Source: an uncultured Myxococcales bacterium
GTDB lineage: Bacteria; Myxococcota_A; UBA9042; DTJE01
Reading direction: 5' to 3'
Length of the DNA: 64,000 nucleotides
Assembly (NCBI GenBank): GCA_903936705.1
Contig: CAIZWN010000063.1
Span: 1-64,000, forward strand
Part shown: one piece after another, positions 4,782-10,245 of the stretch
How the letters are laid out: every line of letters begins with the position of its first letter
Position numbering within the stretch: the first letter of the stretch is position 1
Notes under the pieces: generated by a model
What the model was told of the DNA's origin: nothing
Databases searched by the model: none
The model's input: the letters and a program-made list of their open reading frames with translations, nothing else
Position numbers and translations under genes: made by a program

Positions 4782-7118
4782 ATGCTTTCTAGGGGTGTTG
4801 GTCCTGGTATCGTGGCGTTGATGCTGGTTCTTGGTGGCGCGATGGCGTCGTGCTCGTCGTCCGGTTCGGGCGCGGGTGACGTCTGTTCAGGCGATGGATG
4901 TTCGGCGGAAGTCCCGGACGCAACGCCCGATGCACCGCCCGACGCGATCGTTGACGGCGATGCGGCCGAGGTGCCGGAAGTTGCTGCCGACGTGGACCTG
5001 CCCGAAATCGTAGGCGATGTGGTGGTTGGCGATGACGCGTCCCCCACGGACGTGCCTGGCGACGTGCCAATAGCCATGGTCGATAGAGAATTCAGCTTCT
5101 GGGCCATCTGTGGCGTGTCGATGGGCGCTGCTGCGATGACCGTTGCCGGGCACTCGTTTGCGCGAGGCGGGCCTGAATTCGACGTGATCGGCGCCATGGG
5201 CGGATATATCGACTACCGCTACATGGGCCACGTAGTTCGGGACCTGCTGATGGGCGGTTTCTGCAAGATGCAGGATATCCTGGATCGGATCGACGGGATC
5301 AATGATCCGACAACACCGGGGCTGGAATGCGGTCCGGTGCGGGCAACCCAGCCCTACGAATGGGACTGGGGGTTCAACCAGATGCACTACAACAACAACG
5401 GCGGCAATTGGAAACGCGAATTCTACCTGGACGTGATCGGCAGCTTTGCCTACGCATTCGGTAACCTGCTGTACTACAACCCCGAAAACAAGCTGCTGCC
5501 GCCCGGCGTTCCGTACGAGTGGATGAAGAACACCACCGCCCAGGACAAGTGCGCCACTCCGTACGTGATCCCGAAGAAATCCAAGGACAGCTACAACGCC
5601 GAGTACAACCCGAACGGCGACTACGATCTGGTCACGGTGTGCGACGGCGATACGCGGGTCGGATGCAAGGACGGCGACCCGAACAAGTGCGACGAAGCCA
5701 ATCCCGACTATCGTCTGCTGGCTGGCCAATATAACCCGGCACTGCCCCACAACGTGCCGTACCCCTTCCTTCTGGCGGTGGACTACAACGGCAATGGCAG
5801 GCGGGACTACGCCGAACCGATCGTGGTCAATGCGATGGAACGCTTCCTGGATGTTGGGCTGGATGGTTGCACCAACGAATTCGAGGACGGCCTTGGCGGC
5901 TGCCTGGCGGTCGCGGTCGCGAATCCGGTGGGCGATCCAAACAATGACGACTTCGACCTGATGAACAACCCGCTGGGGACGCAAGGCAACCACGAGTACG
6001 ACGACGCCAACGGCCGGCAGGAACCCTACGAGGACTTCGGGATTGACGGCGTCAAGGACACCCTGGACTTTGGCGAGGCGGACGGGCAGTACACGATGAG
6101 CCCCGGTATGAAGGCACTGCTGGAACAGGACATCCGGTCCTACTTCATGTCGGCGCCCGAGGAACAGCTACGGAAGCACACGTGGTACTTCGACGGCGGG
6201 ATTCGCGACGCCCTTCATTCGATTAATTCGAACACGAATGCCATTGCGCGCTTGCGGGCTCGTAACCAGGAAGTGAAGATCTATGACGATTTCACCAGCA
6301 CTTCCAACGCGATCATTCCGAATGGGAACCTGAACGAGCTGGCGACCGATCTTTCGATCGTGGATTTCTCGCCTGCCAAGTTCGGTCGGAACGCGATGGT
6401 TCGTTACGGCGATCCAGACGCGACTGCCGACGAGATCGAGGCTGGTAACGGCGGCCACGTTGGAGCCGGTGCCGAGGTTGTTCTGCGTGTCACGATGTTC
6501 TTCGGCATGGCTTTCAATCGTATGCCAGGCGTGTACACCAGCGAGGACTTCACGGGCATGGAGCCGATCTGGACCAGCTACTATTCCGAGGCTTTGAAGG
6601 GGCGGCGCTGGTATGTTGTCGCGCTGCCGCCAGGCTACGATGACCCGGCAAACAAGGATCGCAAGTACCCTGCCGGAATCCTGATGCCGGGAATCGGCAT
6701 GCCACTCGACTCGATGGCGGCGACAACCGCGATATTCAACCTTTTGCAGTCCAATGGCCGCATGCCGCATTTCATCACCCTGCTGCCGGACGGGCAGTGT
6801 TCGTACAGGCGCAAGAGCGACGGCAAGCGAGTAACTGGCTGCGTGCGGTCTCCGGCCGGCGGCATGGACTGTGTCGATGACGAGTGCAAGGGCCCGCACG
6901 AGTCTTGTACGGTTACCCACCTTAGTAACCGCGACAGCATGGACCAGGAGTGCAACAGCGGTCACTTCTTCGTGAACCACCAGACGAACATCTGGGCCGA
7001 CCCTGACGCGGCGCCCACCATGAAGTACGAGGACAGCCTGTTCGAGGTCGTCGATATCGTCAACAAGAACTACCGTGTCATGGACAAGGGCACGTTCAAG
7101 GTTCCGGCCGACTGGTAG
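4782..7118 (+). CDS. Lipoprotein with a circularly permuted esterase-like alpha/beta hydrolase fold
   Basis: 778 residues with a GGGGAGG ribosome-binding site before the ATG; the open frame extends upstream but there overlaps the SEC-C gene. A type II signal peptide ends at Cys24 (GAMASC). An Asp/Val/Pro-rich tether runs to about residue 98. Next comes ICGVSMGAAAM with nucleophile-elbow Ser113 and a following segment like the post-nucleophile part of esterase-D proteins. The middle holds EF-hand-like Asp/Asn loops (DYNGNGRRDY; GIDGVKDTLDFGEAD). A candidate catalytic His559 sits in GNGGHVGAG. Only at residues 611-645 does the sequence YVVALPPGYDDP...YPAGILMPGIG appear, which normally opens this fold. 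The protein ends with VDIVNKNYRV, which normally runs directly into the nucleophile elbow. The fold therefore appears circularly permuted. Substrate unknown; expected location is the outer membrane or cell surface. Confidence 0.8.
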   Translation: MLSRGVGPGIVALMLVLGGAMASCSSSGSGAGDVCSGDGCSAEVPDATPDAPPDAIVDGDAAEVPEVAADVDLPEIVGDVVVGDDASPTDVPGDVPIAMVDREFSFWAICGVSMGAAAMTVAGHSFARGGPEFDVIGAMGGYIDYRYMGHVVRDLLMGGFCKMQDILDRIDGINDPTTPGLECGPVRATQPYEWDWGFNQMHYNNNGGNWKREFYLDVIGSFAYAFGNLLYYNPENKLLPPGVPYEWMKNTTAQDKCATPYVIPKKSKDSYNAEYNPNGDYDLVTVCDGDTRVGCKDGDPNKCDEANPDYRLLAGQYNPALPHNVPYPFLLAVDYNGNGRRDYAEPIVVNAMERFLDVGLDGCTNEFEDGLGGCLAVAVANPVGDPNNDDFDLMNNPLGTQGNHEYDDANGRQEPYEDFGIDGVKDTLDFGEADGQYTMSPGMKALLEQDIRSYFMSAPEEQLRKHTWYFDGGIRDALHSINSNTNAIARLRARNQEVKIYDDFTSTSNAIIPNGNLNELATDLSIVDFSPAKFGRNAMVRYGDPDATADEIEAGNGGHVGAGAEVVLRVTMFFGMAFNRMPGVYTSEDFTGMEPIWTSYYSEALKGRRWYVVALPPGYDDPANKDRKYPAGILMPGIGMPLDSMAATTAIFNLLQSNGRMPHFITLLPDGQCSYRRKSDGKRVTGCVRSPAGGMDCVDDECKGPHESCTVTHLSNRDSMDQECNSGHFFVNHQTNIWADPDAAPTMKYEDSLFEVVDIVNKNYRVMDKGTFKVPADW

Positions 7119-7263: not shown

Positions 7264-9030
7264 ATGCTTCGTCGCTTCTCCTTGCTGGCCCTTATCGTTT
7301 TGGTGCATGTGGGATGCGGGTCGTCCGATGGACCGGCGGTGCAGGATGTTTTTGCGCCTGACGCCGATGTCGTCCAGGATACCAGCCTGGTTGACACGCC
7401 AAAGACCGACGATCTGGGCCGCGCTGACACCGAGTTGCCGGACGTTGTAATCCCCGAGATTCCGGTGGGCGAAGATGTGACCATTCCTGATGTGCCGACC
7501 GACAGTTTGCCGATTGACACCGGAAGCGACGTTCAAGTTCCGATTGACGCCGTTCATGATCTGGGTACCGATGTCGAGGACGACCAAGGCGTCAGCGACG
7601 TCCCGGTTGACCTGGGCAGCGACACGTTTGTAGCCGAGGATACCGGTGCCGATCTGTACGTAGATCTGGGAGTGGACCTTGGCGTCGAGGACACCGCTGT
7701 CGAAGTTGACGTTGTTCCGCAGTGTGTCGAGAACACCGATTGCGTCGGCACCGTCGAGATTTCGGTCTGCCATCACTTCGTTTGCGAGGTCGGGATTTGC
7801 GTCATCGTAGCCGACGATGACGGGTCTGCCTGCACGGACGGCGAGTTCTGCACTGCTCCGGATACCTGCCAGGCTGGCATTTGCGTTGCCGGGCCGGCGG
7901 TAACATGCAACGACAACAACATCTGTACTGCCGATTCGTGCGTGCTGGGCGCGTGCGTGAACACTGCCGACACCTCGGTGCTTTCGTGCGGCCTGGGTGA
8001 ATGCTATCGCGAGGTTTTGCGGTGTTCGAATGGCGTGGTCAACACGTGTCAAACCGGTGACTCATCAAACGAGTCGTGCGACGGGTTGGACAACAACTGC
8101 AACGGGACCACGGACGAGGGTAACCCCGGTGGCGGCGCTGCCTGCGATTCGCCCCTTTTCGGGCCGTGCAAGGCTGGTACTACCGTGTGTCAGTCCGGCC
8201 AGGTGGTCTGTGTTCCGAATGTCCAGCCGGTGGCCGAGAAATGTGACAACATCGACAACAATTGCGACGGAACGATTGACGATGGCGATCCCAGCGGCGG
8301 TCTGCGATGCGAGACGGCCAAGCTGGGTGAATGCTTTAACGGTGTGACTGCATGCCGCAGCGGCATTGTGAAATGCGACCAGGTCGTCCAGCCCTCCGTC
8401 GAGATTTGTGACGGTCTGGACAACAACTGTGACGGGCAGGCGGACGAGGGCAATCCCGGTGGCTCCGAGTCGTGCCATACCGGCAAGCTGGGCGTATGCG
8501 ACGATGGCCGCACTTTGTGCAGTCAGGGCGAACTGGCGTGCATCCAGTTTGGCGAGGCATCCGCCGAGGTCTGCGATGGCGTCGATAATGATTGCGATGG
8601 CGTTAACGACCCCGCCGGTGCCCTCAATTGCCAGCCGTTCCTGCGCGACGAGGATGCTGATACTTACGGAGTGGCAGGCGACGTCCAGTGCCTGTGTGCC
8701 TCGGCTTTCCCATATACGGCGACCCAGGCGGGTGATTGCTGTGACACAGATCTGCGGGTCAACGAAGGCCAGACTACACCGTTCACAACCCTAGGCAATT
8801 GTGGGTCGTTCGACTACAACTGCGACGAGACTCTGACCCTGCAGTACAACTACGGTGTGGGAACCTGCGACTGGCAGGGGTTCCTTTCATGCGATGTCAC
8901 GGCAGAGGGGTGGGTTGGTCCCCAACCGTCCTGTGGCGAGGTGGGCGACGTCCTGACCGGTTGCGGCTATGCGTTCCCGATTGACTGCGGAGTCACCGCC
9001 ACGAAGGCCGTCACGCAGGGTTGCTTGTAG
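7264..9030 (+). CDS. MopE-like Cys-rich surface lipoprotein
   Basis: 588 residues. The lipoprotein signal peptide ends at LVHVGC (Cys near residue 18). An acidic tether of about 130 residues, mostly Asp, Val, Thr and Pro, follows. The rest is Cys-rich. Four copies of the MopE-type motif are visible: CDGLDNNCNGTTDEGNPGG, CDNIDNNCDGTIDDGDPSGG, CDGLDNNCDGQADEGNPGG and CDGVDNDCDGVNDPAG, spaced about 50 residues apart, with a degenerate fifth (FDYNCDE) near the C-terminus. Such acidic DxDxD-like loops flanked by cysteines are annotated as metal-binding in MopE and are frequent in myxobacterial surface proteins. It follows the permuted-esterase gene by 145 bases on the same strand. Metal identity and role are unknown. 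Confidence 0.85.
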   Translation: MLRRFSLLALIVLVHVGCGSSDGPAVQDVFAPDADVVQDTSLVDTPKTDDLGRADTELPDVVIPEIPVGEDVTIPDVPTDSLPIDTGSDVQVPIDAVHDLGTDVEDDQGVSDVPVDLGSDTFVAEDTGADLYVDLGVDLGVEDTAVEVDVVPQCVENTDCVGTVEISVCHHFVCEVGICVIVADDDGSACTDGEFCTAPDTCQAGICVAGPAVTCNDNNICTADSCVLGACVNTADTSVLSCGLGECYREVLRCSNGVVNTCQTGDSSNESCDGLDNNCNGTTDEGNPGGGAACDSPLFGPCKAGTTVCQSGQVVCVPNVQPVAEKCDNIDNNCDGTIDDGDPSGGLRCETAKLGECFNGVTACRSGIVKCDQVVQPSVEICDGLDNNCDGQADEGNPGGSESCHTGKLGVCDDGRTLCSQGELACIQFGEASAEVCDGVDNDCDGVNDPAGALNCQPFLRDEDADTYGVAGDVQCLCASAFPYTATQAGDCCDTDLRVNEGQTTPFTTLGNCGSFDYNCDETLTLQYNYGVGTCDWQGFLSCDVTAEGWVGPQPSCGEVGDVLTGCGYAFPIDCGVTATKAVTQGCL

Positions 9031-9084: not shown

Positions 9085-10245
9085 CTACTCAGGAATTGGG
9101 CCAGTCTCCGGAAAGATCCCCGTTTCGTTGTATTGGCGGACGGCCGGGACCAGGAAATCCGGGTAATCGGTCTGGGGCAGCGATACTCCTGCGTCGATGA
9201 ATGCCTTCCAGCCTGTGTAGTCGCCGAACGCCAGGAACAGGTCGCCGGTGCCCAGGACATCCTGCTGGACCTTGATTCCCGCGTCCCGGACGATCCCGGT
9301 CAGAACAGGATCGGCGGATCCCAGGCTGAGTTCGACTATCCGCAGGCCGGGAACGTTTTCCAGTACGGTCTGGAACTCCTCGGCGGTGGCGATCGCCGGC
9401 ATCACCCACAGGCGCGGTTCCTTCTGGACCTGGCCGACGATGACGGGGAAGTCGTCGCGAATCATGGCGACGTCCCAGTAGTTGCCCTCGGCAACCACCT
9501 GGATCACGAGGTCGGTGTTTGACGTCTTCTGGTCCACGTACAGTGCGATGCCTGCCGAACGGGCTGCCGCCAAGGCGTCCGAGAACAGGGGGATCTTCAC
9601 CTCGTCCGGGTCCTGGGCGCCGTCGAAATCAAGGGTCAATGCCAGGATCTGTTCCCAGGTCAGGGAGGACACGTCGCCGGTGCCGTCGGACGTGCGGTCC
9701 ACGTTCGAATCGTGCATCAGAACAAGAACTCCATCCAGGGTTTCCCGAACATCGACTTCCGAGAAATCCACGCCCACTGCCGCGGCGCCGCGAATTCCAG
9801 CAAGGGAATTTTCGGGGTGCTGCCGATGAAATCCGCGGTGCGCCGCAACCATCACTCTTGGGCAGGCCGGATCCGAAACACAACCGTACGGCGTTGCCCA
9901 TTCTGGCGGGGGAACGAAGGCGTCCGCCGCAGCGTCGGCAGGGATTTCTGTGATGGCGTCTACGGCGTCCGCAGCATCCGTCACCGTTTCCAAGTCCTTT
10001 GACGCATCTGTCGGGATGCCGGTGTCCTCGATGTTGTCGAAGGCGGTCTCGAAGGCGGTGTCGAAGGCGTCGGCTGCGTCCGTCGCAAGCCCCAGGTCAT
10101 CCGCGACATCGGTTTTGGAACCATTGTCGACTGTCCCGTTGGCGTTGCCGCCGCAGGCGTTCATCGACAGCGTCACGGATGCAACAAGCAAGCAGAATCC
10201 TGGTGTTCCCGGCAACACAAAAGGGGATGACACCTTCTTGATCAC
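9085..10245 (-). CDS. Glycerophosphodiester phosphodiesterase lipoprotein
   Basis: 386 residues, convergent with the MopE-like gene. An N-terminal signal with lipobox (LSMNAC) is followed by an Asp/Ala/Thr-rich tether to about residue 110. The GDPD domain then starts with VMVAAHRGFHRQHPENS, the HRG...PEN motif of the TIM-barrel family. DVRETLDGVLVLMHD follows, with the metal-binding and catalytic His. The enzyme should hydrolyse glycerophosphodiesters to glycerol-3-phosphate and alcohol at the cell surface or in the periplasm; GDPD members also act on lipid head groups. The domain length (about 270 residues) is normal. Confidence 0.88.
   Translation of the reverse strand: MIKKVSSPFVLPGTPGFCLLVASVTLSMNACGGNANGTVDNGSKTDVADDLGLATDAADAFDTAFETAFDNIEDTGIPTDASKDLETVTDAADAVDAITEIPADAAADAFVPPPEWATPYGCVSDPACPRVMVAAHRGFHRQHPENSLAGIRGAAAVGVDFSEVDVRETLDGVLVLMHDSNVDRTSDGTGDVSSLTWEQILALTLDFDGAQDPDEVKIPLFSDALAAARSAGIALYVDQKTSNTDLVIQVVAEGNYWDVAMIRDDFPVIVGQVQKEPRLWVMPAIATAEEFQTVLENVPGLRIVELSLGSADPVLTGIVRDAGIKVQQDVLGTGDLFLAFGDYTGWKAFIDAGVSLPQTDYPDFLVPAVRQYNETGIFPETGPIPE

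What the first reader, a model, noticed from the sequence alone, without database searches (positions are those of the whole stretch)
4782..7118. Lipoprotein esterase whose alpha/beta fold appears circularly permuted
In esterase-D-like enzymes the opening strand (LPPGYDDP...YPxxxxxHG) precedes the nucleophile elbow GxSMGxxA. Here the elbow with Ser113 comes first, straight after the lipoprotein tether. The candidate His559 follows. The opening strand appears only at residues 611-645, and the chain ends in NKNYRV, the segment that normally runs directly into the elbow. The ends therefore meet where an unpermuted enzyme is continuous. A 450-residue middle with EF-hand-like loops separates Ser from His. 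The order of elements is directly visible; the homology to esterase D is judged by eye.
Basis: partly seen in the sequence, partly recalled or inferred. Interest (0 to 1): 0.82.

Follow-up and report, generated by a model that had tools for sequence, protein, structure and literature searches.

The report
Circularly permuted esterase lipoprotein family
A bacterial surface enzyme and its relatives in about a quarter of the sampled genomes of its phylum carry a standard esterase domain whose first half has moved to the end of the chain, so the catalytic serine comes first; this rearrangement is known elsewhere in the superfamily but I found no report of it in this enzyme branch.

Summary
The 778-aa lipoprotein (4782-7118, +) runs: tether, nucleophile elbow GVSMG (Ser113), a cap of about 320 residues, Asp476, His559, then the esterase opening strands (LPPGYDDP...YP...G.G), ending 13 residues after NYR. 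I collected 58 diverse homologues; 101 of 379 genomes of the phylum have a strong match. All 58 have one GxSMG elbow, placed first. Profile comparison puts the C-terminal block on the first half of conventional esterases and the N-terminal block directly after it. Against PDB 7xrt, model 464-547 matches residues 24-107, 607-632 matches 118-144, and 13-53 matches 145-188 (E 3.6e-20). Rotating the family profile merges two hhalign hits (scores 113 and 73) into one (184; E 4e-14 and 1e-8 become 1e-23). All 45 permuted rows of the tree fall on one side of a branch (support 93), as one ancient permutation would give. The closest precedent is type 2 PHA depolymerases: same order, no detected sequence similarity. 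The 3D test failed: only two sequences could be submitted (pLDDT 29). Activity and substrate are untested. Verdict: a real, apparently unreported, widespread permuted branch of the PF00756 esterases.

The parts
4782..7118 (+). CDS of the permuted esterase lipoprotein, 778 aa plus stop
   Evidence: ORF and translation; homologues
4782..5090 (+). Signal peptide with lipobox-like MASC (Cys24) and Asp/Ala/Pro-rich tether, residues 1-103
   Evidence: Sequence; 45 of 58 homologue N-terminal extensions have a lipobox-like motif by a simple pattern
5091..5225 (+). N-terminal hydrolase block: strand beta5, nucleophile elbow GVSMG, strand beta6 (residues 104-148)
   Evidence: In the family this block aligns with conventional-esterase profile positions 166-211 and with 7xrt residues 145-188
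5118..5120 (+). Ser113, predicted nucleophile
   Evidence: In GxSMG in all members; members were picked by this motif, so its invariance is partly by selection
5226..6176 (+). Cap insertion between beta6 and beta7, residues 149-465, rich in invariant Asp/Gly/Glu
   Evidence: invariant columns; Ser-Asp spacing 277-386 residues in 45 members
5781..5816 (+). EF-hand-like loop DYNGNGRRDYAE, residues 334-345
   Evidence: Pattern D-x-[ND]-x-[NDG]-G-x-x-D-x-x-E present in 42 of 45 members; calcium binding not tested
6207..6209 (+). Asp476, predicted catalytic acid, in strand beta7 motif FDGGIRD
   Evidence: Invariant 45/45; this stretch aligns with the 'YLDxGxxD' strand of conventional esterases
6456..6458 (+). 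His559, predicted catalytic histidine, in GGHVG
   Evidence: 44/45 members
6573..7076 (+). C-terminal hydrolase block: opening strands (LPPGYDDP, YP...G.G, LLPDG), Cys-rich insert, last helix and YR (residues 598-765)
   Evidence: In the family this block aligns with conventional-esterase profile positions 30-175 and with 7xrt residues 24-144
7077..7115 (+). C-terminal tail of 13 residues; the chain ends where conventional esterases run on into the elbow
   Evidence: Tail of 5-23 residues after YR in all 45 members

Best explanation
The gene encodes an outer-surface lipoprotein whose catalytic domain is a naturally circularly permuted PF00756-type (esterase D/feruloyl esterase-like) alpha/beta hydrolase. 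The break lies just before strand beta5, so the chain begins with the nucleophile elbow (Ser113), passes through beta6, a cap of about 320 residues with EF-hand-like loops, beta7 with Asp476, then His559, and only then supplies the opening strands with the oxyanion-hole loop (Gly637-Gly639). It ends next to its own start in the folded domain. Shown at sequence level: element order, adjacency of the two blocks on independent profiles, conservation across the phylum, and one side of the tree for all permuted rows. Inferred: that the blocks pack as one alpha/beta hydrolase, that Ser113-Asp476-His559 hydrolyse an ester at the cell surface, that the cap binds calcium and selects a bulky substrate, and that the gene arose once from a conventional esterase by duplication and end loss.
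For: 58 non-redundant homologues each have one GxSMG, placed first, and the 45 aligned ones end 5-23 residues after YR. PF00756 is hit in 42 of 45 members, with the elbow part of the model matching near the N-terminus and the start of the model near the C-terminus in different members, above the curated cut-off. The family profile against the PDB hits feruloyl esterases down to E 3.6e-20, with pieces in permuted order meeting at residue 144/145 of 7xrt. A profile of 24 conventional esterases gives the same split in individual members. hhalign: natural order gives two hits (scores 113.4 and 73.1), rotated gives one of 184.3, E 1.3e-23. With HMMER on single members, the best stretch rises by more than 3 bits after rotation in 28 of 45, and a shuffled-N control gives no rise. 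Asp476 45/45 and His559 44/45. Conventional esterases in the same genomes show the joined segment, e.g. L159 'VDRTYRTIATREGRAIAGLSMGG'. In the tree all permuted rows fall on one side of a branch, SH-aLRT 93.
Against: No usable 3D model: pLDDT 28.8 for the core and 43.6 for the C-block, from two-sequence alignments. The window protein itself has no Pfam hit and only a weak PDB hit (E 0.11). The usual His of 'HG' near the oxyanion hole is Pro in 11 members, including this one. No activity data. No duplicated intermediate was found.
Confidence: 0.88

Rival explanations
1. The two halves complement each other between molecules (a swapped dimer or oligomer), so each active site is built from two chains and the fold within one chain is not a closed permuted domain.
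For: Sequence cannot tell intra- from intermolecular pairing; a large cap and a linker separate the halves.
Against: The ends lie where an unpermuted chain is continuous, as expected for closure within one chain, and the tail after YR is short in all 45 members.
Confidence: 0.06
2. The domain is a permuted esterase fold that has lost catalysis and serves as a calcium-dependent surface binding or structural protein.
For: The 'HG' His is Pro in 11 of 45 members; the cap is larger than the catalytic part; no activity data.
Against: Ser is present in every aligned member, Asp476 in 45/45 and His559 in 44/45. The His of 'HG' is not part of the triad.
Confidence: 0.12
3. The order is an illusion: a short elbow-like motif near the N-terminus, with a second fold at the C-terminus that only resembles the esterase opening strands.
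For: The window protein alone gives only marginal similarity.
Against: Both blocks are significant on their own in hhalign (E 4e-14 and 1e-8), they abut on the template, and their scores add on rotation. Phylum-wide conservation. No other GxSMG elbow in the chain.
Confidence: 0.02
4. Assembly or gene-fusion artefact in a metagenome-assembled genome.
For: The genome is in 84 contigs, and the one named relative (L001) is a metagenome-assembled genome.
Against: The same architecture is found in about 100 independent genomes, including one-contig and two-contig assemblies G196, G356 and G340.
Confidence: 0.01

Closest known systems
PF00756 esterase family (esterase D, CE1 feruloyl esterases; PDB 7xrt, 1jjf, 5cxu)
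   Same: Same opening strands, helix ending in YRT/YRV, GxSMGG elbow, beta7 Asp and His; matched by Pfam, NCBIfam Xylase_Ferestase (26 of 45 members) and PDB profile searches.
   Different: Element order is rotated: the first half of the domain follows the second. A cap of about 320 residues lies between beta6 and beta7.
Extracellular short-chain-length PHA depolymerases, catalytic domain type 2 (Penicillium funiculosum PHB depolymerase, PDB 2d80)
   Same: Same relative order: triad first, oxyanion hole C-terminal to the triad (PMC2666664). From memory, Hisano et al. 2006 describe 2d80 as a circularly permuted alpha/beta hydrolase.
   Different: No detectable sequence similarity: 2d80 is absent from the PDB profile hits up to E 10, and NCBIfam matches the unpermuted type 1 model in 19 members but no type 2 model. 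It looks like an independent permutation.
alpha/beta hydrolases with permuted peripheral strands (SE_1780 3fle, Mbeg1-like PF11187, DUF6792 PF20591)
   Same: Natural strand permutation within the superfamily, reviewed in PMC11878206.
   Different: There the peripheral strands beta1 and beta2 are permuted and reversed; here the break is before beta5 and the whole first half moves.
Conventional lipoprotein-like esterases in the same genomes (L159, L160, L161)
   Same: Similar opening block and elbow sequence, lipoprotein-like N-termini.
   Different: Unpermuted, 360-570 aa open frames, no acidic cap.

Membership tests
PF00756 putative esterase (by homology) | Score above the curated Pfam cut-off | tested here: met
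   Met by relatives (42 of 45 hit at E<=1, best 9.9e-13; scores 33-42 against cut-off 22 in six checked); not met by the window protein alone.
PF00756 putative esterase (by homology) | Linear order: opening strands, then elbow, Asp, His | tested here: not met
   Order is elbow, Asp, His, opening strands in all members. It is therefore a permuted relative, not an ordinary member.
alpha/beta hydrolase superfamily | Nucleophile elbow Sm-x-Nu-x-Sm and acid and His in order after it | tested here: met
   GVSMG Ser113, Asp476 (45/45), His559 (44/45)
alpha/beta hydrolase superfamily | Central eight-stranded sheet in three dimensions | tested here: inconclusive
   AlphaFold2 with two sequences gave pLDDT 28.8 and 43.6; the models are not interpretable.
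[quoted passage not shown]
   Opening block follows His559 by about 60 residues; definition from PMC2666664.
Type 2 PHA depolymerase catalytic domain | Sequence similarity to known type 2 enzymes | tested here: not met
   No 2d80 hit to E 10; no type 2 model among the NCBIfam hits (I did not check that the library holds one).
Esterase (activity) | Serine-dependent ester hydrolysis | not testable with these tools
   Needs a biochemical assay.

The most novel reading that the evidence does not exclude
A single ancient circular permutation founded a large esterase lineage in this phylum, independent of the PHA depolymerase permutation. It put the membrane tether directly before the catalytic serine strand, so that the active site and a calcium-bound cap are held at the outer membrane surface; cap motifs also inserted in the LPS transporter LptD of other lineages hint at a shared surface role.
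Probability: 0.2. Interest if true: 0.75.

Novelty: new variant of a known kind. Interest (0 to 1): 0.62.

Why it matters
Natural circular permutations of whole catalytic domains are uncommon. This one is widespread in its phylum, has unpermuted relatives in the same genomes, and interrupts the chain immediately before the nucleophile elbow strand. It makes the origin of permutations and the tolerance of the alpha/beta hydrolase fold testable by comparing natural pairs. It also explains why such proteins are missed or half-annotated by linear profile methods.

Tried and rejected
Whole-chain rotation without trimming the tails did not raise HMMER single-stretch scores, probably because the tail and linker of about 25 residues at the joint split the match; trimming at YR and before the elbow strand resolved it. 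I did not hand in the deep family alignment, because loci from the genome search are not on that tool's list. The viral contig scan found no relative. I looked for a duplicated first half in the N-terminal extensions of 58 members: no match to the esterase profile better than E 1.1. L122 and L120, which hit PF00756 only at the elbow, were checked as possible further permuted families and read as an acyltransferase-like domain followed by a conventional-order hydrolase (by eye). Literature searches found no report of permuted esterase D or CE1 enzymes in the held library. One alignment call failed on a frame error and one paper search on a bad term.

Full report
What is there. The ORF at 4782-7118 (+) encodes 778 residues: a signal peptide with a lipobox-like MASC, an Asp/Ala/Pro-rich tether, and from about residue 104 the sequence FSFWAICGVSMGAAAMTVAGHS, which reads as strand beta5, nucleophile elbow and following helix of an alpha/beta hydrolase. 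LPPGYDDPANKDRKYPAGILMPGIG starts at residue 615, and YEDSLFEVVDIVNKNYRV closes the chain apart from 12 residues.

Alone it is nearly invisible. The protein has no Pfam match up to E 10. Its only PDB match is a feruloyl esterase, AmCE1, at E 0.11, and only to residues 598-671; a second, negligible piece puts residues 108-124 on that enzyme's elbow.

The family. Homologues occur in 23 of 53 related genomes and in 102 of 379 genomes drawn from the phylum. With the family profile I counted by hand 101 of 379 genomes with a match of E below 1e-20; weaker matches are mostly to the opening block only, and those I read (L159-L161) are conventional esterases. One named relative (L001) is a Myxococcales metagenome-assembled genome. 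From the loci I took 58 non-redundant proteins: each has exactly one GxSMG, near the start of the conserved core, and all but L011 (cut by the contig end) and the divergent L088 visibly end a few residues after a YR-like motif. Selection used the GxSMG motif, so its invariance is not independent evidence; the matches lacking it were truncated at the N-terminal side.

The permutation test. (a) Pfam PF00756 is found in 42 of 45 members. In some members the elbow part of the model (about 110-154) matches near the N-terminus, and in others the model start (1-67 or 5-115) matches near the C-terminus. (b) The family profile against the PDB gives feruloyl esterase 7xrt at E 3.6e-20: profile 464-547 on residues 24-107, 607-632 on 118-144, 13-53 on 145-188, and weakly 319-367 on 201-252. 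The end of the permuted chain and its beginning thus fall on neighbouring residues of an ordinary enzyme. (c) A profile of 24 conventional esterases from related genomes finds the N-terminal piece at about positions 159-213 and the C-terminal piece at 30-175. (d) In hhalign the natural family profile gives two hits, scores 113.4 (E 4.2e-14) and 73.1 (E 1.1e-8); after rotation they become a single hit, score 184.3 (E 1.3e-23), nearly the exact sum. (e) At the level of single proteins the best stretch rises from a mean of 21.8 to 35.6 bits on rotation; joining a shuffled N-block gives 20.6.

Active site. Ser113 is the elbow serine. Asp476 in FDGGIRD is invariant (45/45) and its strand aligns with the beta7 'YLDxGxxD' strand of conventional esterases, weakly on its own (E 0.003). 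His559 in GGHVG is kept in 44/45. The oxyanion-hole loop would come from Gly637-x-Gly639 of the C-terminal block (both 45/45). The usual His before this Gly is Pro in 11 members, including the window protein. Between beta6 and beta7, the usual site of caps in the superfamily (PMC11878206), lies an insertion of about 320 residues with EF-hand-like loops (pattern in 42 of 45 members). That it binds calcium is inferred.

Origin. Conventional lipoprotein-like esterases in three genomes that also have the permuted form (L159-L161) carry the joined segment, e.g. VDRTYRTIATREGRAIAGLSMGG. In a tree on 167 shared columns all 45 permuted rows fall on one side of a branch (SH-aLRT 93), as one origin would give; the root is unknown and some conventional branches are long. 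The distant members have 200-330 or more extra N-terminal residues, weakly ZU5-like in one case (E 0.087, below cut-off), with no sign of a second copy of the first half.

What could not be shown. Packing of the blocks, activity, substrate and calcium are therefore inferred. A swapped dimer or a catalytically dead binding protein remains possible.

Comparison. The nearest thing in working order is the type 2 catalytic domain of PHA depolymerases, where the oxyanion hole is C-terminal to the triad (PMC2666664). No sequence link to it was found, so the two permutations look independent. By homology this family belongs with PF00756 and CE1 enzymes, but it fails the defining linear order, so I call it a permuted branch. 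I found no earlier report in the held open-access library, which lacks most subscription journals.

Noticed in passing
L089:745-3372 (876 aa), L156:1017-4004, L157:77-2860: Proteins of other lineages of the phylum (L089 is LptD by Pfam PF04453; L156 and L157 share its flanking sequence by eye) carry an insert like NPDPHGDDFDISLNPGGTEGNGRFDEGEPLADRG that matches the esterase cap motif (model about 240-294, E about 1e-11 to 1e-7). It may be a mobile acidic module.
   Followed up: partly
window 7264-9030: The next gene downstream is a lipoprotein-like protein with four MopE-type putative metal-binding motifs (PF11617).
   Followed up: partly
window 9085-10245: Lipoprotein-like glycerophosphodiester phosphodiesterase (PF03009).
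   Followed up: no
L054, L075, L067 N-terminal 200-330 residues: Distant permuted esterases have an extra N-terminal domain, sub-threshold ZU5-like in L067, absent from the window protein.
   Followed up: partly
L054 and L083 near the C-terminus: Some members carry repeats like CNDGLDNDNDGVTDAGDPNC inside the opening half of the esterase domain; NCBIfam's acidic double-disulfide repeat NF033662 is matched in 9 of 45 members.
   Followed up: no
L088:1075-2853: A short, divergent permuted member (593 aa open frame) that branches between the rest and the conventional esterases; its highest identity is to conventional L159 (36% over 129 shared columns). It may be close to the ancestral form.
   Followed up: partly
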